DNA of 64,000 nt from a virus, in IMG/VR virus record IMGVR_UViG_3300047335_000079, positions 1-64,000 of that record. One strand, given 5' to 3'. The notes under the pieces were generated by a model. It worked only from the letters and a program-made list of their open reading frames with translations. It searched no databases and was not told the DNA's origin. This document shows, piece after piece, positions 14,905-38,399 of the stretch (the stretch's first letter is position 1; every line of letters begins with the position of its first letter). The position numbers were made by a program, and so were the translations under genes.

Positions 14905-14910
14905 GGCGTC

Positions 14911-24901: not shown

Positions 24902-26521
24902 CTATTCTACCACAGCCTCGTACTCTGCGTGAGTGGGCCCGCCGTGGTCGGGGTTGTTCGGGTTGAGGAAACTCCCTGCAAGCCCACTGGGGAATGGGGT
25001 GGTGTCGTATGTTGATCTCGCGATGATCTCCTCGGAGGTTTCTAGCGGGCTTGGGTCGGGCTCTCGGTTGGTCAGGAGACGATCGAGGACTTCGGACGCG
25101 AGGACTTCGGACGCGAATGAGTGGGCGTTTTCCCAATCCCTCAAGTATGCCAGGTATGTAATAAACCGCACCGGCGCGGACCCACGAAATTGGGTAAATC
25201 GGCGGGTTGCGAGTCGTCGTGCAAGTGCAGGCCAGGTTGAGCAAGAGTTGACAAAGTTGACAAAGTTGTCAAACGAAATTGCCATTTCGGTCGCCGAGAA
25301 TTCGATGAGTGCGTCGATGAACTCCACATTGGTCCGCAGAGTTGAAGGTTCGGTCGAAGAGGCAAAAATACGGAATTCAACGGTGGGATGGCGGCGCGAA
25401 AAGTGCACGGCCTGATGATGGTCGTTGCTTCTCACGTTGTCTCCGTTGGAGAACAGCCACGCCCACTCGGCAAGCAGAATTGGTGATGCGAGCCGCTGGC
25501 AGTAATGGTTGGCTTGACGACGAGCCAACGTGTCGATAAACTCGCGCATAGCGGGGTCGTAGATGAACGCGAGCATCCGAAGCACCTCGGTCGCAGAGGG
25601 GCGCGCGGATTGACCTTGCGCATTGCGCATGAGCCCTGCGTGAACGTGCATGCCACATGCGCGCGTCGAACGAGCGTGGGAGAGGCGAGCGAGGCCATCG
25701 GAGAAAAAGCCCTGCAACTCACTCAAGAGTAAGGGTGCCGTGACGATCTCCGAGCCGTCGTTAGGGATAGAGCCATCGTACTTACAGATAAAGATAGGGT
25801 GCTCTTGGAAAACTTCAAACAACTCCGAGCGGAACTGATTTCTCGTTGAAGTGCGCCGGGGAGCGAGTTCAAGTTCGACCCCATAACGAAGCCCCGCTGC
25901 GGGCGGGTTGATGCGCGAGTAATTGGTCAGCGTGAAGTCAGACACGTTGGTGGAGTAGTCCAGGTTCTCCTCCATGCCGTAGCGCTGGTAGAACGGGCTG
26001 GCCCGCGAAACGAGGACGTGGTAGCGCGTGCTCGTCGGAAACGGCTGGGGCTCACGGTGGGGTGGTTCGCTCGGCGCGCCTGCGACGGGGGAGTCGTCGA
26101 GGCGGCGCGCAAGGCGAGTTCGAGGGGCCGAGAGGTCTTGAGGATAGAAGTTGTACTCTTCACGAAGGAATTCACTCGCGTTGATATCACGATCAGCGAG
26201 GAACGAGTAAAACGACGGCATGAGAAACGCCGCTCCGTCGCCACATTCAACGAGATAGTCAACAAGCGATTCGAGAATCTGCTGGCGCACCGCCGCCGAG
26301 CGCGTCAGCCGCCGAAAAACACGATTGACGTGAAGAACCAGCCGCACGGCGGGAAGCAGTGGGGTGTGATTCGTCGTCGTGTTTTCCGCAAGCACGCCGG
26401 AAAGCCACGACGTAAAGATTGCCGAACGCATGGCGCGCGGAAAGTGGCGGGGCTCATTCCAGAGCGCCGTGGTGAGGAGTTCTTCGTTGAGTTCAGGTGG
26501 GACTTCAGGTCTTACGGGCAT
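24902..26521 (-). CDS. Putative amidoligase (PF12224-type), copy 1
   Basis: 539 residues. The central 300 residues carry the motifs of the putative amidoligase family related to the glutamine synthetase fold: RYGVELELAP, HPIFICKYDGSIPNDG, SEIVTAPLL, ACGMHVHAGL and PTVEFRIFAS. Family members are predicted to form amide bonds between a carboxylate and an amine at the expense of ATP; the substrate is unknown. Flanking regions are Arg/Pro-rich. An AAGGAG site lies 9 nt upstream of ATG 26521, and a large inverted repeat lies just beyond. It is paralogous to the gene at 36111-38399. Confidence 0.7.
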   Translation of the reverse strand: MPVRPEVPPELNEELLTTALWNEPRHFPRAMRSAIFTSWLSGVLAENTTTNHTPLLPAVRLVLHVNRVFRRLTRSAAVRQQILESLVDYLVECGDGAAFLMPSFYSFLADRDINASEFLREEYNFYPQDLSAPRTRLARRLDDSPVAGAPSEPPHREPQPFPTSTRYHVLVSRASPFYQRYGMEENLDYSTNVSDFTLTNYSRINPPAAGLRYGVELELAPRRTSTRNQFRSELFEVFQEHPIFICKYDGSIPNDGSEIVTAPLLLSELQGFFSDGLARLSHARSTRACGMHVHAGLMRNAQGQSARPSATEVLRMLAFIYDPAMREFIDTLARRQANHYCQRLASPILLAEWAWLFSNGDNVRSNDHHQAVHFSRRHPTVEFRIFASSTEPSTLRTNVEFIDALIEFSATEMAISFDNFVNFVNSCSTWPALARRLATRRFTQFRGSAPVRFITYLAYLRDWENAHSFASEVLASEVLDRLLTNREPDPSPLETSEEIIARSTYDTTPFPSGLAGSFLNPNNPDHGGPTHAEYEAVVE

Positions 26522-26540
26522 CTAGCATTTACTCCTTGAG

Positions 26541-26614
26541 ACAACCTTGTTTAGTTTATTTGGTATTATCGGAATATGGCTCCGATAAGTCGCCATAAGC
26601 TAAGCAAGGTTGTA
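26541..26614. promoter_or_regulatory. Nested inverted repeat upstream of amidoligase 1
   Basis: ACAACCTTGTTTAG at 26541 pairs with CTAAGCAAGGTTGT ending at 26614 (one G-T), and inside it TTATCGGA / TCCGATAA form a second perfect 8-bp arm pair around ATATGGC. It sits between the 31-codon gene and the amidoligase start and covers likely leftward promoter or leader sequence. Candidate operator, attenuator or terminator; no U-tract supports simple termination. Confidence 0.5.
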
Positions 26615-26695
26615 TCGAGCCTTGAGTGCGTTTAAATTGCGAAGCTGGTCTTTGTAAATAAGATTGAGGTAGTTATCGTGAAACGCCGTACTCAT
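26600..26695 (-). CDS. Small hypothetical protein (31 residues)
   Basis: ATG 26695 to TAG. Composition is normal for a soluble helix (DNYLNLIYKDQLRNLNALKA). It follows closely on other very short frames in the same strand and operon. Evidence is packing only. Confidence 0.4.
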   Translation of the reverse strand: MSTAFHDNYLNLIYKDQLRNLNALKARYNLA

Positions 26696-26750
26696 AATCA
26701 TCGTCCTCGTGCAAGTGCTCACACGCACGGACAATTTCAGCGGCGGTCAA
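26673..26750 (-). CDS. Very small acidic ORF (25 residues)
   Basis: TTG start overlapping the end of the 59-codon gene; encodes TAAEIVRACEHLHEDDDYEY and ends next to the following small gene. Too short to classify; listed because neighbours are packed in the same way. Confidence 0.3.
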   Translation of the reverse strand: MTAAEIVRACEHLHEDDDYEYGVSR

Positions 26751-26916
26751 GGTACACCCAAGGTTGCCGAAGTGCTACATCCTCAAACTTAAAAGACACG
26801 GGGTAGTACGAAGGCTGGTTATTCGCCCAATGCTTGCGGGCGCGCTGACTTTGCGAGACAGCGATGCACTCTTTGTGAGTTTGAATGCCCAAGAGGCGAC
26901 GAATGAGCTTAACCAC
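26737..26916 (-). CDS. Small basic hypothetical protein (59 residues)
   Basis: GTG start overlapping the stop of the upstream gene. Begins VKLIRRLLGIQTHKE and contains ARKHWANNQPSYYP. No family recognised. It sits in the chain of coupled small genes running leftward from 29 kb. Confidence 0.5.
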   Translation of the reverse strand: MVKLIRRLLGIQTHKECIAVSQSQRARKHWANNQPSYYPVSFKFEDVALRQPWVYLDRR

Positions 26917-27127
26917 AGGCGCGGTGTATACGATCTAACTCATCGAAGTCGTCGTCGAGTCGGTCGTACATTTCTTCAAGCTCTTTGAGTTCGTACAGAG
27001 CCCGCAAGAGAAGCTGCGTCAGTTTTTTGACTTGAAAGCCAGCCTCTTTCCAAACGGCGAGTTCAGACTCATTGAGGTTGAAGTTTGGGGGTTCCGTAGT
27101 TGTCGGCGAATCGGTTGATTTTGTCAT
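26909..27127 (-). CDS. Small coiled-coil protein
   Basis: 72 residues: Thr/Pro-rich N-terminus, then a long acidic helix with heptad spacing (LTQLLLRALYELKELEEMYD, DDDFDELDRIH). Probably a small oligomeric protein. It overlaps the stop of the KOW-like gene upstream. Confidence 0.55.
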   Translation of the reverse strand: MTKSTDSPTTTEPPNFNLNESELAVWKEAGFQVKKLTQLLLRALYELKELEEMYDRLDDDFDELDRIHRACG

Positions 27128-27338
27128 ACACACTCTTTTTCAGCCTTGAGTCGTTTGGCCGGCGCTCGAATTCTTGGTTGGGGAGATCGTCGTCGGTGGG
27201 TGAGAGGTCAGAGCTTTGAATAGGGTAGTGCTCCCACTCCCCAAAGCGCACGAACCACCCAAACGGGCCTTTGCGATGGATTGTACCACGCGCACCCGTC
27301 TTTGTCAAGATGACCTCATCACCAACTTGAAAACTCAT
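27069..27338 (-). CDS. Small KOW/SH3-like protein
   Basis: 89 residues from ATG 27338 (ATGA overlap with the upstream gene). The opening FQVGDEVILTKTGARGTIH followed by GWFVRFGEWEHYP has the pattern of a KOW or SH3-like barrel found in short nucleic-acid-binding phage proteins. C-terminal half is charged and helical. Binding partner unknown. Confidence 0.55.
   Translation of the reverse strand: MSFQVGDEVILTKTGARGTIHRKGPFGWFVRFGEWEHYPIQSSDLSPTDDDLPNQEFERRPNDSRLKKSVYDKINRFADNYGTPKLQPQ
27280..27308 (-). promoter_or_regulatory. Internal promoter TTGACA-17-TACAAT
   Basis: Minus-strand -35 TTGACA (27303-27308), spacer of 17 nt ending GCGTGG and -10 TACAAT (27280-27285). It lies inside the KOW-like gene and would drive the downstream small genes and possibly amidoligase 1. 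Confidence 0.65.
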
Positions 27339-27505
27339 CGCTCCACCCATGCTAAGCAGTCACAGTGAGTCTTTTCTTTTGTAAAGTCATCAACGCGGTT
27401 GGGGTTGCAGGGGCCTGGCTTTGTTGAAACGCCAAGGCCTCTGCGTCTAAACTCCGCATGCCAGTTTTTAGGGTGACCACAAACGCCGCAACGCTTTGAT
27501 TTCAT
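27335..27505 (-). CDS. Small Cys/His-rich protein (56 residues)
   Basis: ATG 27505 overlaps the previous stop (ATGA), and its own stop overlaps the next ATG. Cys/His pattern CGVCGHPKNWH...GPCNP...THCDCLAW suggests a zinc fold. One of many short metal-binding-type proteins in this strand. Confidence 0.6.
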   Translation of the reverse strand: MKSKRCGVCGHPKNWHAEFRRRGLGVSTKPGPCNPNRVDDFTKEKTHCDCLAWVER

Positions 27506-28527
27506 GACTTCTCCAGCAGGGCGAGAACGATGCCAAACGCCGTTTCTTGGCCGTGAAGAAACGAACCAGCCTGCGCTAAGGGATTTTTCTCGGCCTCGTC
27601 GCGCAACGCTTCGATCTTCTCTCGGAGCGACGACCGTTGGGCTTCCAACCCGGCAGCACGCTTGCGGAGGTGGTCGTTGTCACGCACCAGCATCGCGCAA
27701 GTGATTTCAGAGCGAAGCGGATTGTCGCACCGCTCAGCCTCGGCTTCGTCGGCGAGCGCAATCTGAATCTCGACGACGGCCGCGCGCATACCGCCGCGAC
27801 GGACCGGGTTCGTCGCTTCATTGGCGTCGGCAAGAACATCGTCAACGGCATCTGTCACGCGCGCAATCTTGGCGTTCGCTTCGGCGAGAGCGTCCCGTAA
27901 GTCGCGGATGAGGCGCATATCGGCCTCGCCGCCCTCCGGGTAGCCGTCCTCCGATACGATGTACTCGCCGCGCAATATGCGCTCCGCTCTCGCGATGAGC
28001 CCTGGTGTCTGCTCGCGCAACAGGCGCAGTTGTTCGAGCTCTTCTCGATTTTCTTCGACTGCTCTCGCGCGGGCTTCCTCGACACCCTTGGCTCCGCCAG
28101 GAATCGCGGCGATAAGAGCATCAGTCCGTGCGATTTCTTTTTTTAGCCAGGATGGAGCCGCCTCGTTGGAGCCTCGGGCGGCGAGCGATGTTGTGGAATC
28201 CACAAGGCCCTTGTTAGAGCCCTCCAACGGTTGATGCGCCAGCCATCCGCCACTCATCTGGGAAAGGCACTCCACGTTGCCCTCGCTATCGACGGCATGT
28301 GTGCCGCCGCACCAACCTTCGTGAACCGCCATCTTCACACAGCAACGGGCGTTCGCTTCGGCGAGAGCGCGCTTGGCAAAGATGAGCGCACCTTCGGACA
28401 GTACGAGCGCGTCCCGTAAGTCGCAGACCATTCGGCGCGCGAACTCTTGGTCGATACGGTTGCCGTAGCCTATCAGCCCGACGAAGTGGTCCGCTCTCGC
28501 GATGAGGTCGGCGTGGTCTTTGCTCAT
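27502..28527 (-). CDS. Coiled-coil protein with repeated motif
   Basis: 341 residues from ATG 28527, which overlaps the acetyltransferase stop (ATGA). A motif LIARADHF...CDLRDALVLSEG (N-terminal) recurs as LIARAERILRGEY...IRDLRDALAEAN (middle), indicating an internal duplication. Long charged helices (ARARAVEENREELEQLRLL, LREKIEALRDEAEKN) predict coiled coil. A CVKMAVHEGWCGGTH segment may bind metal. Function unknown. Confidence 0.55.
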   Translation of the reverse strand: MSKDHADLIARADHFVGLIGYGNRIDQEFARRMVCDLRDALVLSEGALIFAKRALAEANARCCVKMAVHEGWCGGTHAVDSEGNVECLSQMSGGWLAHQPLEGSNKGLVDSTTSLAARGSNEAAPSWLKKEIARTDALIAAIPGGAKGVEEARARAVEENREELEQLRLLREQTPGLIARAERILRGEYIVSEDGYPEGGEADMRLIRDLRDALAEANAKIARVTDAVDDVLADANEATNPVRRGGMRAAVVEIQIALADEAEAERCDNPLRSEITCAMLVRDNDHLRKRAAGLEAQRSSLREKIEALRDEAEKNPLAQAGSFLHGQETAFGIVLALLEKS

Positions 28528-28979
28528 TCTAAGTTCGTTTCTTTGAAGAGAGTGGCCGTGAATTCCCCCGAGCGCCGGGTGCGCGTGAGTGTCTGCACCG
28601 GTTTTAAGTTGTTCTTCACGCAGATGCGCTGAGAGGGGGCGTTGTCGTCGGCGACGATGGCCTCGTACTCTTGGCCCATGCGGGCGAGGCACGAAATCTT
28701 GAAGTTAAGCACGTCTGTGCCATAGCCCTTATTTCGGTGATCGCGCGAGGTGACGGTAATGGAGTGTTCAACTTTAAAGTCTTTGCCAGTGATCTTCGCC
28801 AGCGAAAGAGCGAGCGGTGCTCCGTGGTCCACCTCGCGCACAACAGCGATGTACGAAGCATCGGGGTGTGCATAGAAGTCAAACGCACTCTGCGTGATGC
28901 GACGATCACCGTTGGCGCGAAGGAAATCCAAATAGCCCTGCGGCAGAGGGGTGTCCCAGATGTACACAGCTAGACTCAT
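28524..28979 (-). CDS. GNAT-family N-acetyltransferase
   Basis: 151 residues. SITVTSRDHRNKGYGTDVL provides the beta4 strand and the acetyl-CoA pyrophosphate loop (R-x-x-G-x-G), followed by EAIVADDNAPSQRICVKN, the usual beta5-alpha region ending with the N-x-x-S/A motif. It probably acetylates a small molecule or protein; substrate unknown. Coupled to both neighbours by 4-nt overlaps in the accessory operon. Confidence 0.75.
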   Translation of the reverse strand: MSLAVYIWDTPLPQGYLDFLRANGDRRITQSAFDFYAHPDASYIAVVREVDHGAPLALSLAKITGKDFKVEHSITVTSRDHRNKGYGTDVLNFKISCLARMGQEYEAIVADDNAPSQRICVKNNLKPVQTLTRTRRSGEFTATLFKETNLE

Positions 28980-29302
28980 GCGAGCATCCTTGCAACGATG
29001 TTGTCGTAGGGCTCGTTGTCGATGCCGTCCTCTGCGTCCATCATCGCCTCCAAGTTACGCCGCTGTTGAACTTTTGCGCGCATCTGAGCACGCACTTTAA
29101 TGCCTCGCGCGACGGCCTCTTTTGCTACCTGCTGGCGGCGCGTGAGAATAGTCACACAGGCCACACACGCGGACTCAAAAAGCACGGGGTCACCGACTGG
29201 ACCTAAGGGCTTGCAGGAGGGGAGGCGGCACACGGGGCACTGACGCCAAGTGCGTCCAAAGAGCACGGTGTCGGGCTTGGTGGGTTTGGTGGCAAAGGGC
29301 AT
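28976..29302 (-). CDS. Small Cys4-type protein, leaderless gene
   Basis: 108 residues. CPVCRLPSCKPLG and SACVACVTI form a four-cysteine zinc site in the first half; the rest is a basic helix (VRAQMRAKVQQRRNLEAMM) suited to nucleic acid or membrane contact. ATG 29302 lies 7 nt after a TACAAT -10 element, predicting a leaderless mRNA. Confidence 0.6.
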   Translation of the reverse strand: MPFATKPTKPDTVLFGRTWRQCPVCRLPSCKPLGPVGDPVLFESACVACVTILTRRQQVAKEAVARGIKVRAQMRAKVQQRRNLEAMMDAEDGIDNEPYDNIVARMLA

Positions 29303-29307
29303 TTCTT

Positions 29308-29526
29308 TTATTGTACCGTATCCTGGGCCATGAGGTCAAGGCCCTTGATTTCAAATTTGAGTGCTTGAAGTGCGAACTTTTTCGAGCGCGCGGCTTGGTG
29401 CCGGGCTTGGTGCTCGACGAGATTGGTGGGGTCGAACGCGATCGCTCGAACGGCGTCGCGCTCGCTTGCCTCATAGCGAGCAATTTCGCGGTCAATGATG
29501 TGCACCACGTCGGCGTACTCGATCAT
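29308..29526 (-). CDS. Small helical hypothetical protein
   Basis: 72 residues from ATG 29526 (TGATG overlap with the upstream stop). Sequence IEYADVVHIIDREIARYEAS then basic helices AARSKKFALQALKFEIKG. No family recognised. Its last codons contain the promoter for the next gene. Confidence 0.5.
   Translation of the reverse strand: MIEYADVVHIIDREIARYEASERDAVRAIAFDPTNLVEHQARHQAARSKKFALQALKFEIKGLDLMAQDTVQ
29310..29339 (-). promoter_or_regulatory. Promoter TTGACC-18-TACAAT, leaderless start
   Basis: Minus-strand -35 TTGACC (29334-29339), 18-nt spacer, -10 TACAAT (29310-29315), then 7 nt to ATG 29302. Same geometry as the promoters at 14.9, 23.0 and 42.05 kb. Confidence 0.7.
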
Positions 29527-29795
29527 CAGAAGCACACCGAGCAAGAGCAGTGGGTATTGAGCCCGCCCGACGCGAGTGCGCCTGATCGACAGTAGCGGCT
29601 CCCGTAGTGGCTGGGGCCGAAGGTGACCGTGCCTGCGGCCATTTCCTGGCATGACAAGCACGCGGCGGGGGACAGGCATTTGACCGTGCCGTCCATGAGC
29701 CGCTGGGTGGGGGAGGAGTGGGCCGCACAGTACATATTGTTAGCGATGAAGTTACAGGGGCCTGGGGTGTCATCGACACCAAGAAGGTCAAACAT
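29526..29795 (-). CDS. Small Cys/His-rich protein
   Basis: 89 residues with PCNFIANNMYCAAH, KCLSPAACLSCQE, SRYCRSG and HCSCSVCF, probably two zinc sites. No family recognised. Ends in TGATG overlap with the next gene. Confidence 0.55.
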   Translation of the reverse strand: MFDLLGVDDTPGPCNFIANNMYCAAHSSPTQRLMDGTVKCLSPAACLSCQEMAAGTVTFGPSHYGSRYCRSGALASGGLNTHCSCSVCF

Positions 29796-29798
29796 ACT

Positions 29799-30101
29799 TT
29801 AATCCTCGTGTGGGGTGAAAATGGAGTTGGGTTGGTGCTCGAATTGGTCGATGAGGTAGCGAATCTCCTCGATGCGACCCGCAAGCAGGCCTGCGCGATA
29901 CTCGTCGAATTGCTCTTGCTCGCGCCCGCACTCTGTGTGGTTGAACGCCGCGCGCTCGTTGAGTAGCTCACGCTTGCGATCGGCGAGGTAGTGGCGCAGG
30001 CGTGTGCGAAAGTTGGAAAACGCCGGGCGGTTTACCAAATGGTTGATCGTTTGGTCGGGGGCTCGCACGACTTGGAATGGTGCGCGTGGTCGGTCGTTCA
30101 T
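29799..30101 (-). CDS. Hypothetical helical protein downstream of tRNA-Pro
   Basis: 100 residues from ATG 30101, just after the tRNA-Pro gene on the same strand. Basic N-terminus, then RTRLRHYLADRKRELLNERA and IEEIRYLIDQFEHQ helices. Probably transcribed from the promoter at 30.3 kb together with the tRNA. Confidence 0.5.
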   Translation of the reverse strand: MNDRPRAPFQVVRAPDQTINHLVNRPAFSNFRTRLRHYLADRKRELLNERAAFNHTECGREQEQFDEYRAGLLAGRIEEIRYLIDQFEHQPNSIFTPHED

Positions 30102-30120
30102 GGTTTGTCTTTCTCTGAAA

Positions 30121-30197
30121 TGGTATACCCTCAGGGATTTGAACCCTGAACCTCTTGGTCCCAAACCAAGCGCGCTACCAAATTGCGCCAAGGGTAT
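30121..30197 (-). tRNA. tRNA-Pro (anticodon TGG)
   Basis: Cloverleaf with acceptor stem ATACCCT/AGGGTAT, D stem GCGC/GCGC, anticodon stem CTTGG/CCAAG around loop TTTGGGA (anticodon TGG complementary to 30161-30163), T arm CAGGG-TTCAAAT-CCCTG, discriminator A and encoded CCA. All stems pair perfectly. Confidence 0.95.
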
Positions 30198-30310
30198 TTA
30201 TGATGGGGCTTTTCGCGGCCCAGACGCCCCAGCCTGGTTTGCTACTCGTCATACAACAACTTGCGGTAGCCGCGATAAGGGATGGCAGCCCGTGTCATAG
30301 GTGCACAATG

Positions 30311-30340
30311 ATCTTAGCACATTGGACGCGCGGGTGTCAA
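30311..30340 (-). promoter_or_regulatory. Promoter TTGACA-18-TAAGAT for tRNA-Pro unit
   Basis: Minus-strand -35 TTGACA (30335-30340), 18-nt spacer and -10 TAAGAT (30311-30316), overlapping the stop region of the upstream gene and about 110 nt before the tRNA-Pro 5' end. Confidence 0.7.
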
Positions 30341-30640
30341 GCCCCTTTTTTGCGTTCTCTGATACCAGTCAAGCAGGTCGGCGCGGCCATTAGTGCAGTC
30401 GCAGGGCCTTGAACTGTGGCGGGTGACGCCGCCCTTGGTGGTTTCGGTGATCGGTATGCGCTCCATGCAGTAAGAAATTTTGAGAGTGCTGCCGAGGACC
30501 TGGTGGGAGAGCCAAAAGTGGTTGCAGTCGGGGCAGGTAATATCAAGTTTTTGGTAACTTGCGGGCCAGCCGGCGGCATTGGTGAACAAGGCCTCGCCGA
30601 TGACCTCTTTGAGGCCTTGGAAAAAGGACTTGAAGATCAT
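30314..30640 (-). CDS. Hypothetical protein with Cys motifs
   Basis: 108 residues. ITCPDCNHFWLSHQ and RPCDCTNGRADLLDWY suggest one zinc site assembled from two Cys pairs. The N-terminus is a short amphipathic helix. ATG overlaps the stop of the 53-residue membrane gene (ATGA). Confidence 0.6.
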   Translation of the reverse strand: MIFKSFFQGLKEVIGEALFTNAAGWPASYQKLDITCPDCNHFWLSHQVLGSTLKISYCMERIPITETTKGGVTRHSSRPCDCTNGRADLLDWYQRTQKRGLTPARPMC

Positions 30641-30798
30641 TGGAAGATGCGTTCGTAGTTGTGGATGAAGTCACCGAGCACCATGCACGATGCAACGATG
30701 GCCTCGAAAATGAACACGCCCCACATGAGCCGATAGGCAAAGCGGTGGAAGTCCTCAGGTGTGCCCCAGAGGTCCTCATCGTCACCTGGCCCGGTCAC
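30637..30798 (-). CDS. Small membrane protein (53 residues)
   Basis: GTG 30798 overlaps the stop of the 31-residue membrane gene (GTGA). Acidic N-terminus TGPGDDEDLWGTPEDFHRF, then one membrane helix LMWGVFIFEAIVASCMVL. Coupled downstream by ATGA. Confidence 0.55.
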   Translation of the reverse strand: MTGPGDDEDLWGTPEDFHRFAYRLMWGVFIFEAIVASCMVLGDFIHNYERIFQ

Positions 30799-30890
30799 AG
30801 GTATTTTACCGCAAGCACAGCTAAGACGACCGCGATGATCGCGACGACTATGAGTTCAAAGAAGATTTCGCCTTCGTCATCAGGTTCCAT
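30795..30890 (-). CDS. Very small membrane protein (31 residues)
   Basis: ATG 30890. Acidic EPDDEGE followed by a single hydrophobic helix FFELIVVAIIAVVLAVLAV and KYL. Overlaps both neighbours, which supports translation. Confidence 0.55.
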   Translation of the reverse strand: MEPDDEGEIFFELIVVAIIAVVLAVLAVKYL

Positions 30891-31017
30891 TACACACCGT
30901 GCAGTCGTCGTCGATGTTCCTACCGTGACAGCCGCAATCTGCCTGCGGGCAGTGCACCACGAGAGGGCCGTCCAAGTGAGGGTCGTCCCAGTCGAGGCAG
31001 TCGTCGTCATCAGTCAC
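30880..31017 (-). CDS. Small acidic Cys-rich protein (45 residues)
   Basis: GTG 31017 overlaps the stop of a 14-codon frame (GTGA). Contains DDDDCLDWDDP, HCPQADCGCHG and DDDCTVC, a likely metal site. The gene pair here resembles the pair at 31906-32186. Confidence 0.45.
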   Translation of the reverse strand: MTDDDDCLDWDDPHLDGPLVVHCPQADCGCHGRNIDDDCTVCNGT

Positions 31018-31058: not shown

Positions 31059-31082
31059 AGTTTTCAACTTTCTGGGTAGAAG

Positions 31083-31645: not shown

Positions 31646-31651
31646 TTTGAA

Positions 31652-31903
31652 TTACCTACCTTCTCGGTTCCCGCGTTGCGAACGAGGCTTAAAAGCCAGC
31701 GGCGACGGCGGCCCAATCCCGCTGCACAACCAATCGCCGTACACGCCTGGAAAGTCGGCGTGCCATTCATGCGGCATGTGGTCCATGGGCCATGTGCAGC
31801 GTAACTCGGTGGGCTCCTTGCCCGGAGGCTTCTCCGGCCCGCACAGCGCCGCAACCTCTAGCGCCAGCCAGCGCATGGCCAACGTCATCATAGGGCTGGT
31901 CAC
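31652..31903 (-). CDS. Small protein with one Cys/His module
   Basis: 83 residues from GTG 31903, 2 nt after the upstream stop. Contains AALCGPEKPPGKEPTELRCT then WPMDHMPHEWHADFPGVYGD: Cys...Cys-x(4)-H-x2-H...H and an aromatic end, a version of the module repeated in amidoligase 2. The rest is a hydrophobic N-terminal helix and a basic tail. Confidence 0.55.
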   Translation of the reverse strand: MTSPMMTLAMRWLALEVAALCGPEKPPGKEPTELRCTWPMDHMPHEWHADFPGVYGDWLCSGIGPPSPLAFKPRSQRGNREGR

Positions 31904-31905
31904 GG

Positions 31906-32013
31906 CTATCCCCTGCGCGCACGGATATGCGCCGCTCGGCAAGAGTAGCACCAAATGCCGTCCATGTAACGTGGGCGGCGTTTGCATTTTGTGCAGTTGA
32001 GTTCGTCTTTCAC
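31906..32013 (-). CDS. 35-residue zinc-ribbon protein
   Basis: GTG 32013 overlaps the stop of the upstream membrane gene (GTGA). Sequence NCTKCKRRPRYMDGIWCYSC is a compact CxxC...CxxC ribbon with a basic tail (HIRARRG). Confidence 0.55.
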   Translation of the reverse strand: MKDELNCTKCKRRPRYMDGIWCYSCRAAHIRARRG

Positions 32014-32186
32014 TTGGAATACTCCGAGTCGCCACACGCGAGCGTGGGGCAGTAGTGCGTTGCACCATGCGGCAAGGGCGCACAGTCCGCACCTAGTATA
32101 GCAATCACTGCAGACATGCCCAAGGTGATGCCGATCAATGTGCCCATGATGCCTGGTGAGATTCTCACGGGGTATAGTTTTGACAT
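32010..32186 (-). CDS. Small membrane protein with Cys tail (58 residues)
   Basis: ATG 32186. Hydrophobic segment GIMGTLIGITLGMSAVIAIL then a tail with DCAPLPHGATHYCPTLACGD. Coupled by GTGA to the zinc-ribbon gene. The tail recurs in the 14-codon frame at 31014-31058. Confidence 0.5.
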   Translation of the reverse strand: MSKLYPVRISPGIMGTLIGITLGMSAVIAILGADCAPLPHGATHYCPTLACGDSEYSK

Positions 32187-32230
32187 GGCTCCGTCATTAT
32201 TTGAGCTTATGCTATTGATTGTGGCAATAC

Positions 32231-32647
32231 TCAGCCATAAATCCGTGGTTGTTTCCTCTTTTCAAGATACGCGGCGGTGGCCACGTCGAGCTTGTCTTGG
32301 TCGAGGATGATTTCGGCAATCTCCTCAAACGGCGTCGGTGGGAAGGCGTCGTTGAGCGCGGCGAGCGCCAACTGCTGGTCGGTGGTTAGCCCAAGGTAGT
32401 CGAGGGCTTCGTCGTTGAGAAAGGCGTCGCCGGCGCTCTGCCAGGGATGAGTAGGGGAGGCGTCGGGCTCGCCGATGTAGTGCGCGGGGCGAAACTCCCA
32501 GCCATCGGGCCTGAAAACGTCACATGCGACACCAAGGCAACAGAACGCGCCATCGCCTGAGCGAAGATAGCCCGAGCCTTGGGTATAGCGGCGCGAAAGC
32601 AGGGCCTGTGCCCAAGCCTCGCGGCGGAGTTGAATTTCGTGCGTCAT
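32231..32647 (-). CDS. Conserved phage hypothetical protein
   Basis: 138 residues. Motifs QALLSRRYTQGSGYLRSGDG, FCCLGVACDVF and LALAALNDAFPPTPFEEIAE match a widespread small family of phage and bacterial proteins of unknown function. ATG overlaps the previous stop (ATGA). Confidence 0.7.
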   Translation of the reverse strand: MTHEIQLRREAWAQALLSRRYTQGSGYLRSGDGAFCCLGVACDVFRPDGWEFRPAHYIGEPDASPTHPWQSAGDAFLNDEALDYLGLTTDQQLALAALNDAFPPTPFEEIAEIILDQDKLDVATAAYLEKRKQPRIYG

Positions 32648-33105
32648 TCCTGATTCCTCGCGGCGCGCTCGGGCTGTTCGTAGTGACCAAAGTCAATCAT
32701 GCGACTTTCAACTGTGAGCGGGCTATTGTGAACGGCGGTCTTGATGAGACACGCCGCAGGCACACGGAGCAGTCCGACGCGCGTTGAGCCTAACGGCGCG
32801 AGATCGAGGCGAATGGTGACGTTGGTGCGTCCGAACTTGATAACGACGCCAGTCTGTCCGTGGTAGCGGCTATCGGAGCGGGGTCCAAGGTTGACGCGAA
32901 CGCGATCACCGATCTGCAACGCCGCCATAGCGAGAGTTGAATCGGCGGCTCGCTTGTCTTTGATGGTTCGCACAACGTCGCGGTTGAGTCGAACAAGATG
33001 GTCCAGACTCATATTGTGAAGCAGTGCGGCGGCTTGAATGTAGGTTGAGACTGAACTCCGGCTCGCTTCGGTGGTTGTAGCTTGGCGAGTTTCGGTGGGT
33101 GGCAT
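32644..33105 (-). CDS. Hypothetical protein with KOW-like segment
   Basis: 153 residues from ATG 33105. Helical N-terminus (STYIQAAALLHNMSLDHLVR), then QIGDRVRVNLGPRSDSRYHG and TGVVIKFGRTNVTIRLDL, a KOW/SH3-like pattern seen in nucleic-acid-associated proteins. No further family evidence. Confidence 0.55.
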   Translation of the reverse strand: MPPTETRQATTTEASRSSVSTYIQAAALLHNMSLDHLVRLNRDVVRTIKDKRAADSTLAMAALQIGDRVRVNLGPRSDSRYHGQTGVVIKFGRTNVTIRLDLAPLGSTRVGLLRVPAACLIKTAVHNSPLTVESRMIDFGHYEQPERAARNQE

Positions 33106-33109
33106 TTCT

Positions 33110-33349
33110 TTAGTCCTCAATTTGGGGTTTGTAGCCATCGGGTGGGATGACGTAGGCGATAGCGGAAAATGGAATGAGCACTTGCTCGCGGTCTTGGTAG
33201 CCGTACTTGAAAAGCACGCAGTCGTCAGCGAGTTCTTCAACTTTGCCGTAGAACTGCGTGTGTCCGACGTTGATTACGAAGCCATTGTTGGCAAGGTCGC
33301 GGGTTTTGTAGTCCCAGAGGCGACGATGAAGATCATACGGGCGGGGCAT
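33110..33349 (-). CDS. Small hypothetical protein
   Basis: 79 residues, beta-rich (NNGFVINVGHTQFYGKVEEL, VLFKYGYQDREQVLIPFSAI), ending GYKPQIED. The end and the following intergenic bases resemble those of the next gene (CYKPETED), suggesting duplication of the gene junction. Confidence 0.55.
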   Translation of the reverse strand: MPRPYDLHRRLWDYKTRDLANNGFVINVGHTQFYGKVEELADDCVLFKYGYQDREQVLIPFSAIAYVIPPDGYKPQIED

Positions 33350-33352
33350 CTT

Positions 33353-33655
33353 TTAGTCCTCAGTTTCAGGTTTGTAGCAGTTGGGGTTGGTTTGGACCAT
33401 TTTTACTCGTGCCGCGTTTACTCGTGCCGCGCTCGTTGCTCGTTTGATATCGAACGCGGCTTGGCACCGTGTATCATATTCGTCCGTGCCTCGACGCGGG
33501 TCGAAGTCGCAGGCACACTTGGAATTGCCCTCGGGCACCCCGTAGTGCCAATCACAGAGCCACAGGTCGGCGGCGTCCGCGAGCGAAACACCAGGGTAGG
33601 TGGTTTGGATGAAACTCACCGAGAGTTCTTTTGGGGTCATGGTGTACTCGGTCAT
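33353..33655 (-). CDS. Hypothetical protein with Cys pair
   Basis: 100 residues from ATG 33655 (ATGA overlap). LWLCDWHYGVPEGNSKCACD could bind metal; C-terminus RATSAARVNAARVKMVQ is basic and helical. No family recognised. Confidence 0.5.
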   Translation of the reverse strand: MTEYTMTPKELSVSFIQTTYPGVSLADAADLWLCDWHYGVPEGNSKCACDFDPRRGTDEYDTRCQAAFDIKRATSAARVNAARVKMVQTNPNCYKPETED

Positions 33656-33900
33656 GAGGCGCGCCTGGGTTTCGGGTCCCACGCGCCGTGGTCGATTTCG
33701 TACTGCGGGTCGAGGGGATAGCCGCAGCCCTCACAGGTGATGTACTCCCCTTCTTGGAAGTTGTGAATATCCGCTTGCGTCCGAGGGGTGGCAAACGACT
33801 CGGAATAATACGCGGCGTAACACGCCGGGCAGGCCATTTCGCCTATAAACTCGTTGTCACTCTCGAACTCGTAGGCAACGATGGTTGCTTCAGTAATCAT
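33652..33900 (-). CDS. Small zinc-ribbon protein
   Basis: 82 residues. MACPACYAAYY and ITCEGCGYPLD form a CxxC...CxxC ribbon separated by about 35 residues. A GGAG site precedes ATG 33900 by 7 nt. Coupled to both neighbours. Confidence 0.6.
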   Translation of the reverse strand: MITEATIVAYEFESDNEFIGEMACPACYAAYYSESFATPRTQADIHNFQEGEYITCEGCGYPLDPQYEIDHGAWDPKPRRAS

Positions 33901-34061
33901 AAATCTTCTCCGGTAAGTGCGTCATGCACGGTGCATCGCACGTTTTGTGCGAGAGTTGGGAACTGTGCACACTGATAGATAGCGGGCACCAGCCGGTCGG
34001 CGACTTGAATCCCAAGTTCGAGAAAGGCGAGTGCGAGGACGAGGATTTTTAAGTTTCGCAT
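33897..34061 (-). CDS. Small exported or membrane-anchored protein
   Basis: 54 residues from ATG 34061 (TAATG overlap). N-terminal basic residues and hydrophobic helix LKILVLALAFLELGIQVA, then a short domain with two cysteines. Signal anchor likely. Confidence 0.5.
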   Translation of the reverse strand: MRNLKILVLALAFLELGIQVADRLVPAIYQCAQFPTLAQNVRCTVHDALTGEDL

Positions 34062-34201
34062 TAGTCGGGGTGCCCCGCGTTCATGCGGGCTTCGATTTCT
34101 TCGAGGATCAGGTCTTGGAAGGTTGCACTTAATGTGCACTCTTGGAGGTAGAGTTCAATAAGGTCACTGTTGGAGATATTCTTGACGTAGCGCAAGAGCA
34201 T
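34061..34201 (-). CDS. Small acidic helical protein (46 residues)
   Basis: ATG 34201 overlaps the previous stop. SNSDLIELYLQECTLSATFQ and LILEEIEARMNA are amphipathic helices. No family recognised; support comes from coupling at both ends. Confidence 0.5.
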   Translation of the reverse strand: MLLRYVKNISNSDLIELYLQECTLSATFQDLILEEIEARMNAGHPD

Positions 34202-34464
34202 TACTTCGGCTGGGTGCATTTATCCTCCGTCATTTTACGAATCTGATCTTTAAGTTCTTTAAGTTCTTTGAGTGCCAGCCGATGCTCTACAATGAGTTTA
34301 TCAAGGGCCATCCGATGCTCTACAATGAGTTTATCAAGGGCCCTGTCTGTCTCATCTGAAGCCGTATAGTGGTACTCGCCACGGGCTACAAGGCCACGCT
34401 CTTTGGTGAGGGCATGGCGGACTTTATCACCGCCGAGTTGGTGGCGGAATTCGGTGATGGTCAT
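34201..34464 (-). CDS. Small protein with internal 11-residue repeat
   Basis: 87 residues. Starts TITEFRHQL, shared with the gene at 34657-34827. Middle contains ALDKLIVEHRM and ALDKLIVEHRL in tandem, encoded by a 33-bp direct repeat (about 34288-34343), then a Lys/Glu helix. Probably a short coiled coil. Confidence 0.5.
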   Translation of the reverse strand: MTITEFRHQLGGDKVRHALTKERGLVARGEYHYTASDETDRALDKLIVEHRMALDKLIVEHRLALKELKELKDQIRKMTEDKCTQPK

Positions 34465-34656
34465 TTAGGCCTCCGTCGTTTTGGTGAGTACGACGCCGCG
34501 CTCGAAAGGCTGTTCAATGACCACAACGTCAACGAGCGGGTACAGCCATTCGGTGTTAGCGACGACGACTGCATCCTCGGGACTGCTAGCGATCACCGCC
34601 TGTTGTACATAGTCCCGCCCGATCGGGGTGCGGGCTTCGATGAAATAGAGTGTCAT
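34465..34656 (-). CDS. Small hypothetical protein
   Basis: 63 residues: LYFIEARTPIGRDYVQQAVI and SPEDAVVVANTEWLYPLVDV show alternating strand-helix segments of a small alpha/beta domain. Abuts both neighbours. Confidence 0.5.
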   Translation of the reverse strand: MTLYFIEARTPIGRDYVQQAVIASSPEDAVVVANTEWLYPLVDVVVIEQPFERGVVLTKTTEA

Positions 34657-34827
34657 TTAGTCGTATACTTCCACTTCCACGTTGAAGGTGTTTTTGGCGG
34701 GGTTATAAATGAGCCCCGCGACGTGTACAGCGCGCGGACAATGACCGTCGTAAATTTTAACGAGGAGCTCGGTGTTGTCCGGGTCGTCAATTTGAGCGAG
34801 TTGGTGGCGGAATTCGGTGACGGTCAT
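34657..34827 (-). CDS. Small hypothetical protein
   Basis: 56 residues from ATG 34827. Starts TVTEFRHQL like the gene at 34201-34464; the shared start region is a 31-bp near-identical DNA repeat. The C-terminal half is beta-rich (FNVEVEVYD). Confidence 0.5.
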   Translation of the reverse strand: MTVTEFRHQLAQIDDPDNTELLVKIYDGHCPRAVHVAGLIYNPAKNTFNVEVEVYD

Positions 34828-34828
34828 T

Positions 34829-34948
34829 TTACTTTGCACCTTGTTCGTAGACGACGTATTCGCCATAGGCGGTGAGTTTACCACACGCCAGGCAAGAGAT
34901 TACTTTGGGCGCGATCACGACGAGACCGCAGTGAGTGCATCGGGTCAT
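34829..34948 (-). CDS. 39-residue zinc-ribbon protein
   Basis: ATG 34948 overlaps the previous stop (ATGA). RCTHCGLVVIAPKVISCLAC is a CxxC...CxxC rubredoxin-like knuckle, with a short tail. Followed after 1 nt by the next gene. Confidence 0.55.
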   Translation of the reverse strand: MTRCTHCGLVVIAPKVISCLACGKLTAYGEYVVYEQGAK

Positions 34949-35145
34949 TTGAGTTCCTCTTCTTTGATGCCGCGAATACGCGCGGCGTGTTTGTAGTCAG
35001 CCTCGATCATTTCGACGATCAGACTTGAAATGGAGTCGCCAGAGACTTTAGATATGAAGGCGAGCTTGGCAAAGAGCGCGGAATCCAGCCGGAGCGGGAA
35101 GTCCTTGCGCTCGATGCCTTGCGCCTTGAACTCAGATCGTGCCAT
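34945..35145 (-). CDS. Ribbon-helix-helix-like DNA-binding protein
   Basis: 66 residues. FPLRLDSALFAKLAFISKVS followed by GDSISSLIVEMIEADYK fits an Arc/MetJ-type ribbon-helix-helix: an N-terminal beta strand with alternating residues and two helices joined by a G-x-S turn. Candidate repressor for this region, perhaps acting at one of the palindromes upstream. Coupled to the amidotransferase gene. Confidence 0.6.
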   Translation of the reverse strand: MARSEFKAQGIERKDFPLRLDSALFAKLAFISKVSGDSISSLIVEMIEADYKHAARIRGIKEEELK

Positions 35146-36053
35146 TAGTCGTCATGCCCAAAGGGCAGTGAGTTAATTGCATCAACTTGAGCGTCGATGG
35201 GTAAGCCGGATTTGTACATGATTTCATGTACTGCGTCCATGAGCCGGGCGTTGGACGGGCGTTCGTCGCGCAAGCGTCCGGCCTGCGAGCGGGCTCCCAG
35301 GGGAGTCAGCCGCCCGTAGGTCTTGGCTTTTTGTGCGTGACGCTGGCGACGCCGGGCCCAACGATCACACTTCTTGCAGAAGCGGTCGTTTGCGATGCCG
35401 TGGTCACACGAGGTCAGGAACTTATTGGTTCGCGCCTGCCATTGTGCGAAGGTTTCAAGTGTGCCCGCTTGCGCGGTCAACTTAGACCCACCCGCCCAAT
35501 ACAGGGGCTCGAACGCGGAGTGGTTGGAGTACCAATTGCCGTCGCGCTTTACGCCCGCCTTATCGTTGAAGATGATCGTTGTGCCGTCTACGTCCATGAT
35601 GACGAACTTGGATGCCTCTTTCTTGGCATAGGCATCGACGTGCGCGATGAACTCTTCGTTTTGGAGGATGCCGGGTGCGGCTTCGAGCAGTGGTTCAAGT
35701 GAGCGAGCGTAGTGCCAAGTGTCACTCATCGAGGAGTCAATGTCACACTTGACCTCGCGCAGGATGCCGTTATGAAACAGCAGTGTGCCGGGCCTGACCG
35801 TAAACGGGTGGGTGTTTTTCAAGTTGATACTACCCGCCGTTGCGATTCGTGCGTGGAACACGATTTCAGTCGCACCTTGGGTTTTGTAGTGCGCCATTTC
35901 AGAGAGCAGCTTGTCCGTGGAGAAGCCCCGGGAGACTGCAATCCCGCCGTTGACACGCGCGGCTAGGCCCCACCCATGCGGGTTGGAGGAATTAGCGCGG
36001 CGGAGTTGATCGTCGGGGATGTTGGCGGTCGGGGATACGATGATGATGCAGAT
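35145..36053 (-). CDS. Class II glutamine amidotransferase, apparent ATC start
   Basis: 302 residues. The frame extends upstream of the first ATG (35897) to a Cys codon preceded by ATC (36053), with AGGAG 9 nt before it. This gives the expected N-terminal nucleophile Cys followed by NPHGWGLAARVNGGI, HARIATAGSINLKNTHPF (oxyanion/glutamine-binding Arg), LFHNGILREV and SDTWHYA, the full class II (Ntn) GATase signature. Starting at ATG 35897 would remove the nucleophile. It should release ammonia from glutamine for a partner synthetase, and amidoligase 2 lies immediately upstream. The C-terminus has CDHGIANDRFCKKCDRW, a possible zinc site. Confidence 0.75.
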   Translation of the reverse strand: MCIIIVSPTANIPDDQLRRANSSNPHGWGLAARVNGGIAVSRGFSTDKLLSEMAHYKTQGATEIVFHARIATAGSINLKNTHPFTVRPGTLLFHNGILREVKCDIDSSMSDTWHYARSLEPLLEAAPGILQNEEFIAHVDAYAKKEASKFVIMDVDGTTIIFNDKAGVKRDGNWYSNHSAFEPLYWAGGSKLTAQAGTLETFAQWQARTNKFLTSCDHGIANDRFCKKCDRWARRRQRHAQKAKTYGRLTPLGARSQAGRLRDERPSNARLMDAVHEIMYKSGLPIDAQVDAINSLPFGHDD

Positions 36054-36085
36054 TGTACTATGCTCCTGGGTTGGTTAGTGTGTCC

Positions 36086-36114
36086 ATGATATCACAGAAC
36101 GAGGTGAGTGTCAA
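36086..36114 (-). promoter_or_regulatory. Promoter TTGACA-17-TATCAT
   Basis: Minus-strand -35 TTGACA (36109-36114) overlaps the stop codon of amidoligase 2; -10 TATCAT (36086-36091), 17-nt spacer ending TGTGA. It drives the amidotransferase gene, whose leader carries an AGGAG site before the ATC start. Confidence 0.75.
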
Positions 36115-38399
36115 GCGGGCCACCGCACGAACCGGGCGGTGCGTCGTTCAACTTCTTGCGCGTTCTCGTTCTCGTAGCCGTAGTGCGGTCCGCTGTGCCC
36201 GATGGGCAGGGAGCAAGTCCACCAGGGACTCCCAGGCCAAGTGCCCTGAGCGGTGCCATCCAGGATGGCGGACCCCACACCTTGCGAGCATCGTGCCAGG
36301 CCTCGGTCGGCGTTGGGTCCTTCGTTGTAGCCGATTGGAAAATCGGGGGTGGGTTCAGGTTCAGGTTCAGTACTGGAATCGTTGGGCCAGGTGCGCCAGC
36401 CAAGTTCGCCTCTTTCAAGTGCCACTTCGCGAGAGTCGAACATGTAGCCGTAGTGCGGCCCGGAGTGATAGGCAGGGAGCGAGCAGTGCCAAGCCTCAGG
36501 GCCGCTTCGGTCATTACAGAGGTTGGCTTCGGTTTGGCTTTCAAGTGGTAACTGCGGGGCGGGCGTGGTTTCAAGAACCTCACGCCCACACTCGTTACCG
36601 CTGCCGTAGTGCCCGATGTGCGGCACACTTGAATCGTGGCGCGCTCGGGTGCATATGTAGATCATGCGGTTTTGACTCACGAAGTCCGCGCCGCACCGAT
36701 TGGAGAGGTCCGGTTCAAATTGCTCGCTTGGGTTCGTTTGTTGCTCCTGCGCCCAGGTGTGAGCGGGTGTTGCGTCCGGGTCAGTGTGAGCGTGGTGGTC
36801 GCCGTCGTGGCCTCGGGTGCGGGTGCAGGCCCAGCGCCCATGGTCGCTCTCGCTGCACTGATTGGTGTGGCTGAAAGTTGAAATCGTGGGCGGTGTCGCC
36901 TGCGCCCAGGTGTGAAAGGGCGGTGCGTTCGGATTGGTGAGAGCCTGGTGGTCGCCTGGATGCCCTGGGATGCGGGTGCAGGTGAACCCACGGTCGCTCT
37001 CTCCGCATAGAGGGTCGTCAGTTGAGCCAGGCGGCGGCGTTGGCGGAGTTGGAACAGGTGCGGTCCGAACCTCGAAGGTATACGCCCGTGACCAGGGCTG
37101 GGCGTTGCGCACAAAGCCTGCGTGTTGCAGGACTTGGTTTGCGTGGTACACCGCGTGTTCGTTGAGCCGATCGCCGGTTCGCACGACGCCACGGTCCGAG
37201 CGATGCTGGCCGTTGCAGTAGGAGGAGTACCAGCGATGCAGTGCGTGACGGTCAAACGTCCAGCAGTTGGGCCGCACGGTGCTGCTGTTGTTCACTATCC
37301 ACAGTGCTACTTCACGATTGGTGGGTCCGTTGCCGTTTGCGTGCGATGCGCGATGCACGCGCTCGGGAATGAGTCGAGCGGTGAGCGGCTCGCCGTCTGC
37401 GCCTGGCATGACGGGGGCAACGCGGTTGGCGCGATTGCGCCGCCCGTAGGTGCGCGTCGGCCCGCCCCACCCTATGCCATAGGGGGTCGAAGTTGGACTT
37501 TGTGCGATGCGCGGCCGTGCAGGTGCGTCCTCGGATTGGTCACGGCGCAGGTGCGTCGGGTAGCGGTTGGCAATCACCTTTTTCAAGTTGGAGAATTGCT
37601 CGCCGCGACTCTCGATGAAGGCTTGAAATTCTGCGAACGTGCGGGGTTGAACGGGCGCACCCGAATCGGTGAGCATCGTGCCATAGGCAATGATGGCATC
37701 GACGAACTCGATGTAGCCTCGAAGCCGGGTCCGATGCAAGGTCGAGGAGAACATACGGAACTCCAACGTCCCATGATGCTCGGAGATTGAGATCGCGTGG
37801 CCGTGGGAGGTGCGGATGGGTTGGTATTGGCCCCAGGTGCACTCCGCGCGTCCTGCGATGTTCTCGAATTCGGGTTTGTTGGGCGCATGGGCGATGAGAG
37901 AGGACATATGCTTTTCGATGCGCGAGAGGGGTTGGGGGCGGGGGTAGTAGCCGAAGCGGTCGGGCGTGAGTTCAGATGGGCTGATGGGTTCGGGCACGCC
38001 TGGGCGCGTCGTGTGGATGTGCGTCCCGCAACTTGAATGGGACGATGCGAAGCGGCGCAAGATTGGCGCGACTTCTGTGACGTATCGCAGGGCTTCGTGA
38101 CGGGGGAGCGGCGCGTGCACCATCTCGAACCCGGGCGCGCCCGTGGAAACGTCGGACTTGCAGATGAAGATCGGGTGCTCGGCGAAAGTTGAAAGAATGT
38201 CGCCAGCGGCGGATTCGACGCCACCGTGCGCCTGCAATTCAAGCTCGATGCCAAAGAGGCGCATGGTCGGGTCATACGGGTTGTTGACGCCGGGGCTTGC
38301 GTCCGTGAGCATTTCTAAGATGTTCTCGGAGTAGGCGCGCAGGGTTCGGTATCTCGTGAGCGGGCCCAGATCGGGCCGGACCTCGTTTAAGTAGGGCAT
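36111..38399 (-). CDS. Putative amidoligase (PF12224-type) with five C-terminal Cys/His modules, copy 2
   Basis: 762 residues. Residues about 40-290 repeat the amidoligase motifs of copy 1: LFGIELELQA, HPIFICKSDVS, FEMVHAPLP, SCGTHIHTTR and TLEFRMFSST. A linker domain follows, then from about residue 480 five copies of a Cys/His module, for example CGESDRGFTCTRIPGHPGDH and CSESDHGRWACTRTRGHDGD; the last two have CSLPAYHSGPHYGY and CSLPIGHSGPHYGY. Such modules probably bind zinc and may bind the carrier or substrate. The catalytic part is predicted to ligate an amine to a carboxylate using ATP. GAGG lies 4 nt before ATG. Confidence 0.7.
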   Translation of the reverse strand: MPYLNEVRPDLGPLTRYRTLRAYSENILEMLTDASPGVNNPYDPTMRLFGIELELQAHGGVESAAGDILSTFAEHPIFICKSDVSTGAPGFEMVHAPLPRHEALRYVTEVAPILRRFASSHSSCGTHIHTTRPGVPEPISPSELTPDRFGYYPRPQPLSRIEKHMSSLIAHAPNKPEFENIAGRAECTWGQYQPIRTSHGHAISISEHHGTLEFRMFSSTLHRTRLRGYIEFVDAIIAYGTMLTDSGAPVQPRTFAEFQAFIESRGEQFSNLKKVIANRYPTHLRRDQSEDAPARPRIAQSPTSTPYGIGWGGPTRTYGRRNRANRVAPVMPGADGEPLTARLIPERVHRASHANGNGPTNREVALWIVNNSSTVRPNCWTFDRHALHRWYSSYCNGQHRSDRGVVRTGDRLNEHAVYHANQVLQHAGFVRNAQPWSRAYTFEVRTAPVPTPPTPPPGSTDDPLCGESDRGFTCTRIPGHPGDHQALTNPNAPPFHTWAQATPPTISTFSHTNQCSESDHGRWACTRTRGHDGDHHAHTDPDATPAHTWAQEQQTNPSEQFEPDLSNRCGADFVSQNRMIYICTRARHDSSVPHIGHYGSGNECGREVLETTPAPQLPLESQTEANLCNDRSGPEAWHCSLPAYHSGPHYGYMFDSREVALERGELGWRTWPNDSSTEPEPEPTPDFPIGYNEGPNADRGLARCSQGVGSAILDGTAQGTWPGSPWWTCSLPIGHSGPHYGYENENAQEVERRTARFVRWPA

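What the first reader, a model, noticed from the sequence alone, without database searches (positions are those of the whole stretch)
24902..38399. Two amidoligase paralogues plus a class II glutamine amidotransferase: a possible amide-conjugation system
Seen: genes at 24902-26521 and 36111-38399 share G(V/I)ELEL, EHPIFICK, a CG(M/T)H(V/I)H motif and (V/L)EFR(I/M)F. A class II GATase with complete catalytic residues (35145-36053) follows the second copy with its own promoter, and a GNAT enzyme lies between the two. Known: PF12224-type amidoligases are predicted GS-fold, ATP-dependent carboxylate-amine ligases, and class II GATases supply ammonia from glutamine. Inferred: the phage amidates or conjugates a carboxylate on a protein, nucleotide, metabolite or envelope component. 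Two diverged ligases plus a tailored ammonia source in one phage suggests a dedicated pathway, perhaps for host takeover or DNA/capsid modification.
Basis: partly seen in the sequence, partly recalled or inferred. Interest (0 to 1): 0.85.

Follow-up and report, generated by a model that had tools for sequence, protein, structure and literature searches.

The report
Phage amidoligase–glutaminase cassette, duplicated ligase
A novel tailed phage carries two related glutamine-synthetase-fold ligases and a matching ammonia-making enzyme; nearly every related phage ligase sits next to such a partner, so the pair is real, but it was predicted in 2009 and what it modifies is still unknown.

Summary
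Both genes are PF12224 amidoligases above Pfam's cut-off (29.0 and 28.4 bits; cut-off 22). Both AlphaFold models match glutamine synthetases or YbdK in the PDB. The third gene is a class II GATase with a complete active site. One detail was missed: its only possible start that keeps the nucleophile Cys2 is AUC, not AUG. The GS-like fold is there, and the genes co-occur: 76/79 GATase-anchored and 79/80 and 72/75 ligase-anchored viral loci hold both, almost always ligase first. At 60% identity, 89 of 93 ligase lineages have the partner. The two window ligases are probably an in-genome duplication; at least four other phage lineages also duplicated the ligase. The idea is not new. Such pairs were noted in phiEco32, LUZ24-like phages, Marvin and OM43 phages, with cell-wall modification against superinfection as the standing prediction. 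The rest of that cassette (COOH-NH2 ligase, ATP-grasp, GGCT) was not found here. Most likely mechanism: glutamine-derived ammonia, or another amine, is coupled to an ATP-activated carboxylate, perhaps on envelope peptides. The substrate is undetermined. DNA or capsid modification has no support. New member of a known, biochemically untested kind.

The parts
36111..38399 (-). amidoligase B (winB, 762 aa); GS-like domain about residues 45-285 (37545-38267)
   Evidence: PF12224 28.4 bits, cut-off 22; invariant residues G50,E52,E54,D83,E92,G125,H127,R184,E213,R215,F217; AF2 pLDDT mostly 75-97 over the domain, Foldseek hits are glutamine synthetases, best E=1.1e-5
36183..37007 (-). C-terminal tail of winB with five Cys/His (zinc-knuckle-like) modules at residues 465-484, 515-536, 569-594, 628-649, 704-739
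   Evidence: sequence pattern only; AF2 does not resolve the tail (pLDDT mostly <45)
35145..36053 (-). class II glutamine amidotransferase (winG, 302 aa), directly downstream of winB (57 nt gap), same strand
   Evidence: PF13230 26.7 bits, cut-off 23; family profile matches GlmS and PurF structures; complete catalytic set
36051..36053 (-). inferred AUC start codon of the GATase, followed by the Cys2 codon at 36048-36050
   Evidence: no canonical start in frame before Cys2; about 250 tallied relatives use ATG, two loci use GTG, and L128/L135 use ATT at the same position
36063..36067 (-). Shine-Dalgarno-like AGGAG, 9 nt before the AUC
   Evidence: sequence
36086..36114 (-). sigma70-type promoter of the GATase, TTGACA-N17-TATCAT, TG before the -10
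   Evidence: 11/12 consensus; 16 promoter-like sites found in the region against 6.0±2.5 in shuffles
38436..38464 (-). promoter-like site upstream of winB, TTGACA-N17-TAAACT
   Evidence: 10/12 consensus
24902..26521 (-). amidoligase A (winA, 539 aa); GS-like domain about residues 208-445 (25187-25900)
   Evidence: PF12224 29.0 bits, cut-off 22; AF2 pLDDT about 74-97 over the domain, Foldseek best hits YbdK and glutamine synthetases, best E=1.2e-6

Best explanation
This is a minimal phage amidoligase–glutaminase cassette. The GATase (class II, Ntn fold) hydrolyses glutamine and supplies ammonia. The adjacent GS-fold ligase (winB) activates a carboxylate with ATP and joins it to that ammonia, or to another amine, giving an amide. 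The second ligase (winA) is a diverged duplicate that probably does the same chemistry on a second substrate or step, sharing the GATase. Shown here: homology, predicted fold, active-site residues, and conserved adjacency in other phages. Inferred from enzyme families: ATP-dependent amide formation and ammonia supply. Inferred from the literature only: the target is a host cell-envelope peptide, and the benefit is exclusion of superinfecting phages. My confidence is about 0.85 that the ligases form amides and work with the GATase, about 0.6 that the product is amidation with ammonia rather than joining of another amine, and about 0.35 for an envelope target.
For: Pfam above cut-off for all three genes. 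GS/YbdK-like structures for both ligases, and a weak YbdK-family match of winA (TIGR02050, E=0.0025, far below its cut-off). Invariant G-x-E-x-E, D, E, G-x-H, R, E-x-R-x-F in 86 and 78 aligned ligases. Both genes present in 76/79, 79/80 and 72/75 loci, ligase first in 76, 78 and 67 of these; 89/93 lineages at 60% identity. Median ligase-stop to GATase-start gap of 15 nt, with 43 of 150 pairs overlapping, which suggests translational coupling. The same pair is annotated in Marvin, MEP401/402 and ctgrD200. In some phages it sits with ATP-grasp (31 loci) or GGCT genes, and once as a GATase–GGCT fusion. Published reports describe such sets as a peptidoglycan-modification cassette.
Against: I found no report of an assayed member of this phage ligase family, and no solved structure by sequence. 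The window lacks the COOH-NH2 ligase, GGCT and ATP-grasp genes of the published cassette, so the cell-wall reading is weaker here. The GATase's AUC start could mean low expression or a sequence error. winA has no GATase next to it.
Confidence: 0.7

Rival explanations
1. The ligases join an amine-bearing amino acid or peptide to a carboxylate, making a small peptide, metabolite or protein tag, and the GATase acts as an Ntn hydrolase or transferase on gamma-glutamyl amides rather than as an ammonia source.
For: The best structural match of winA is YbdK, a carboxylate-amine ligase rather than a GS. Some relatives sit with RimK-like ATP-grasp and gamma-glutamylcyclotransferase genes, and one GATase is fused to GGCT.
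Against: The GATase keeps the whole glutaminase residue set and its family matches GlmS and PurF domains best. The pair usually stands without detected ATP-grasp or GGCT in the flanks examined.
Confidence: 0.25
2. The set modifies the phage's own DNA or a virion protein.
For: The phage also carries a deoxyribosyltransferase-like gene (6609-7382, E=6e-6, below cut-off) and a thymidylate-kinase-like gene (11775-12410, below cut-off). GS-fold ligases could in principle act on nucleotides.
Against: No base-hypermodification enzyme appeared in the Pfam scans of about 30 window proteins. The published cassettes are read as wall modification, and no link to virion genes was found.
Confidence: 0.07
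3. An auxiliary metabolic set that moves glutamine nitrogen into amino acids for the host cell.
For: Proposed for Phage-ZRK32, whose genome carries amidoligase, GATase, glutathione synthase and GGCT genes and whose presence aided growth with nitrate or ammonium (PMC10945688).
Against: That growth effect was not tied to these genes by deletion in the passages read. A ligase plus a glutaminase without a known acceptor gives no obvious nitrogen gain.
Confidence: 0.08

Closest known systems
Mycobacteriophage Marvin gp105-gp106 and its relatives (Marvinvirus)
   Same: PF12224-like ligase followed by a class II GATase, same order; the window GATase aligns over 76% of its length at 28.7% identity
   Different: One ligase, with an N-terminal zinc-ribbon-like stretch; ATG start; no duplication seen in the stretch examined
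OM43 phages MEP401/MEP402 (gp05-06, gp06-07)
   Same: Amidoligase directly before a GATase; GATase E=9e-15 to the window; the authors name both families (PMC10580990)
   Different: Genes overlap; single ligase in the stretch examined; different phage family (Zobellviridae)
Podovirus 'peptidoglycan modification cassette' (phiEco32, LUZ24, RIO-1, PSA-HP1, UFV-P2; Iyer 2009, Hardies 2013)
   Same: Amidoligase_2 plus glutamine amidotransferase
   Different: The published set also has a COOH-NH2 ligase, ATP-grasp and GGCT; none of these found in the window's genome
YbdK and glutamine synthetase (GS/GCS superfamily)
   Same: Predicted fold of both ligase domains
   Different: Sequence identity about 10-14%; accessory N- and C-terminal regions; the paired external glutaminase
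MurT/GatD amidation of peptidoglycan in Staphylococcus aureus
   Same: ATP-dependent ligase plus glutaminase that amidates a cell-wall peptide (PMC3267633); an analogy only
   Different: Mur-ligase relative with a different kind of glutaminase (own knowledge); unrelated folds

Membership tests
PF12224 Amidoligase_2 | score above Pfam gathering cut-off | tested here: met
   29.0 and 28.4 bits against 22
PF12224 Amidoligase_2 | conserved GxExE, D, GxE, CGxHxH, R, ExR residues | tested here: met
   all invariant columns present in winA and winB
PF12224 Amidoligase_2 | GS-like fold | tested here: met
   AF2 models and Foldseek against PDB; a prediction, whole-chain TM-scores low (0.2-0.4)
PF12224 Amidoligase_2 | ATP-dependent carboxylate-amine ligase activity | not testable with these tools
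   needs biochemistry
class II glutamine amidotransferase | score above Pfam cut-off (PF13230) | tested here: met
   26.7 bits against 23
class II glutamine amidotransferase | Arg, Asn-Gly and Asp glutamine-binding residues | tested here: met
   R69, N95-G96, D111 in the family alignment; R and NG aligned with GlmS
class II glutamine amidotransferase | Cys as N-terminal nucleophile after the initiator Met | tested here: inconclusive
   Cys2 encoded and conserved, but only reachable from an AUC start codon
phage peptidoglycan-modification cassette (phiEco32/LUZ24 type) | Amidoligase_2 with GATase nearby | tested here: met
   winB 57 nt upstream of winG
phage peptidoglycan-modification cassette (phiEco32/LUZ24 type) | COOH-NH2 ligase (PF14395) | tested here: not met
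   no match in the 70,979-bp record
phage peptidoglycan-modification cassette (phiEco32/LUZ24 type) | gamma-glutamylcyclotransferase | tested here: not met
   no PF06094 match; no match to relatives' GGCT model
phage peptidoglycan-modification cassette (phiEco32/LUZ24 type) | ATP-grasp ligase | tested here: not met
   no PF14398 match; no match to relatives' ATP-grasp model; other ATP-grasp families not tested
phage peptidoglycan-modification cassette (phiEco32/LUZ24 type) | acts on cell-wall peptides | not testable with these tools
   not shown for any phage in the passages read

The most novel reading that the evidence does not exclude
A glutamine-dependent amide ligase unlike characterised ones: a GS-fold ligase fed by a separate class II glutaminase rather than by free ammonia, with two paralogous ligases sharing one glutaminase whose synthesis is held down by a non-AUG (AUC/AUU) start, giving the phage a two-substrate amidation system.
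Probability: 0.25. Interest if true: 0.7.

Novelty: new member of a known kind. Interest (0 to 1): 0.38.

Why it matters
The pair recurs across many diverged phage lineages (89 of 93 ligase lineages sampled), including podo- and myovirus-like phages and actinobacterial and marine hosts, so it probably does something useful during infection, yet I found no report of any member assayed biochemically. The two-gene unit is small enough to test directly, and the repeated ligase duplications suggest that the ligase decides the substrate while the GATase can be shared.

Tried and rejected
Single-protein scans of IMG/VR with winA (no confirmed relative) and winB (no match), and with winG (two): this phage has no close relatives there. 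Nucleotide search of 24 kb against INPHARED: none. A second, winG-led GATase alignment was too diverged to scan. Defence library: no hit for the three proteins. The idea that GATase and ligase merely happen to be neighbours was rejected by the co-occurrence counts. The idea that the GATase is dead (start at 35897) was rejected because the sequence from Cys2 onward keeps the invariant residues. The DNA-modification reading was set aside for lack of partner enzymes. AF2 of the winB tail gave no usable fold.
Full report
WHAT IS THERE. The window is 64 kb of a 70,979-bp virus record whose two ends repeat about 175 bases with one visible mismatch (read), so the genome is probably complete. It is a myovirus by its tail sheath, with portal, capsid and DNA polymerase genes, and has no nucleotide match in INPHARED for the 24 kb searched. 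Both ligases pass the PF12224 cut-off. They are homologous to each other (28% identity, E=2e-15; alignment score 167 against at most 51 in 300 shuffles). EHPIFICK occurs only in these two among 153 ligase domains.

THE GATASE AND ITS START. The GATase has every class II residue: Cys2, HxRxxT, HPF, HNG, SDT. A profile of the family finds GlmS and PurF structures. Between the upstream in-frame stop and Cys2 no ATG, GTG or TTG exists, and the first in-frame ATG (35897) would remove Cys2 and the invariant N24, G27, G29. AGGAG lies 9 nt before the ATC, under a near-consensus promoter. Almost all relatives have ATG there: 177 in one tally and 74 in another. Two loci (L036, L240) have GTG. L128 and L135, nearly identical contigs from two samples, have ATT with no canonical alternative. 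So an AUH start before Cys2 appears in two lineages; in the window a base-call error cannot be excluded.

FOLD. AlphaFold2 with 86- and 78-row alignments gives mostly confident ligase domains in both proteins. Foldseek against the PDB returns the GS/GCS superfamily: YbdK family at 1.2e-6 for winA and glutamine synthetase at 1.1e-5 for winB. Whole-chain TM-scores are low (0.2-0.4) because large parts are not modelled well. No PDB chain matches convincingly by sequence. The N-terminal part of winA (helical, medium confidence) and the long tail of winB have no assigned role. The tail carries five Cys/His modules. Relatives often carry CxxC zinc-ribbon-like motifs: 159 of 192 ligase reading frames have at least two.

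CO-OCCURRENCE. I built profiles from annotated phage pairs and searched loci fetched from IMG/VR. Of 79 GATase-anchored loci, 76 hold the ligase, always upstream on the same strand. Of 80 ligase-anchored loci, 79 hold the GATase. Of 75 further loci found with a winA-led alignment, 72 do. Ligase-first order holds in 76, 78 and 67 of these; GATase-first in 0, 1 and 5. The sets overlap in contigs; counted by lineage at 60% ligase identity, 89 of 93 have the partner. The median gap from ligase stop to GATase start is 15 nt and 43 of 150 pairs overlap. In the window the gap is 57 nt and the GATase has its own promoter. The retrieval is ranked by similarity to paired genes, so these rates hold for this subfamily, not for all PF12224. 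Isolated or deposited phages show the same: Marvin, MEP401/402, ctgrD200, C75C1, and probably ChaoS9.

DUPLICATION. In the tree of 153 ligase domains winA and winB are sisters (SH-aLRT 82, long branches, so with caution), backed by the shared EHPIFICK. Sister copies also occur in L003/L004/L097, L020, L117/L119/L122 and L149, so the ligase has duplicated at least four other times. In L117/L119/L122 and L149, as in the window, two ligases accompany one detected GATase in the order ligase–GATase–ligase. In L003/L004/L097 and L020 there are two GATases too.

WHAT IS KNOWN. Iyer et al. 2009 suggested that phiEco32's amidoligase and GATase modify the cell wall to block superinfection; I could not read that paper and rely on PMC10580990 citing it. 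LUZ24-like UFV-P2 has COOH-NH2 ligase, Amidoligase_2, GATase, ATP-grasp and GGCT-like genes. PMC5498523 calls such a set a peptidoglycan modification cassette and lists phages that share it. ATP-grasp genes occur near 31 of my first set of loci and GGCT near 8, with one GATase–GGCT fusion. In the window's genome PF14395, PF06094 and PF14398 are absent, so it is not filed as a member of the full cassette, only as the ligase–GATase core.

MECHANISM. Shown: homology, predicted fold, active-site residues, adjacency. Inferred from families: ATP activates a carboxylate on the GS-fold ligase; the GATase provides ammonia from glutamine; an amide forms. Inferred from the literature only: envelope target and exclusion of other phages. 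Against: no assay of the family was found, and partner genes are missing here. DNA or capsid modification has no positive support.

VERDICT. Real, well supported as a functional pair, but a diverged new member of a published, untested kind. Interest 0.38.

Noticed in passing
window 36048-36053 (-); L128 and L135: Class II GATase genes whose only start codon before the catalytic Cys2 is AUC (window) or AUU (L128/L135), where nearly all relatives use AUG; reminiscent of the AUU start of infC.
   Followed up: partly
window 36183-37007 (-); also 31652-32092 (-) and 14704-14928 (-): Cys/His modules of the form C-x(5-10)-C-x(3-7)-GHxGxH: five at the C-terminus of winB, and single similar patterns in two other reading frames of the window.
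   Followed up: partly
L011:4001-4897 (Phage C75C1): GATase fused to a gamma-glutamylcyclotransferase (PF06094, 76.8 bits), downstream of an amidoligase gene.
   Followed up: partly
L003, L004, L097, L020: Phages with two ligase genes and two GATase genes, apparently the whole pair duplicated.
   Followed up: partly
window 54444-55913 (+): Major capsid protein is about 35% identical to Komagataeibacter phages phiKX1/phiKX2, the only matches in INPHARED; hints at an alphaproteobacterial host.
   Followed up: no
window 12610-13440 (-) and 14229-14870 (-): Homologues of phage Pam3 gp34 (PF23977) and gp33 (PF23984).
   Followed up: no
window 6609-7382 (-) and 11775-12410 (-): Nucleoside 2-deoxyribosyltransferase-like and thymidylate-kinase-like genes, both just below the Pfam cut-offs.
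   Followed up: no
window 23040-24788 (-): 582-aa protein with two LamG-like (PF13385) repeats, weakly matching a virion structural family.
   Followed up: no
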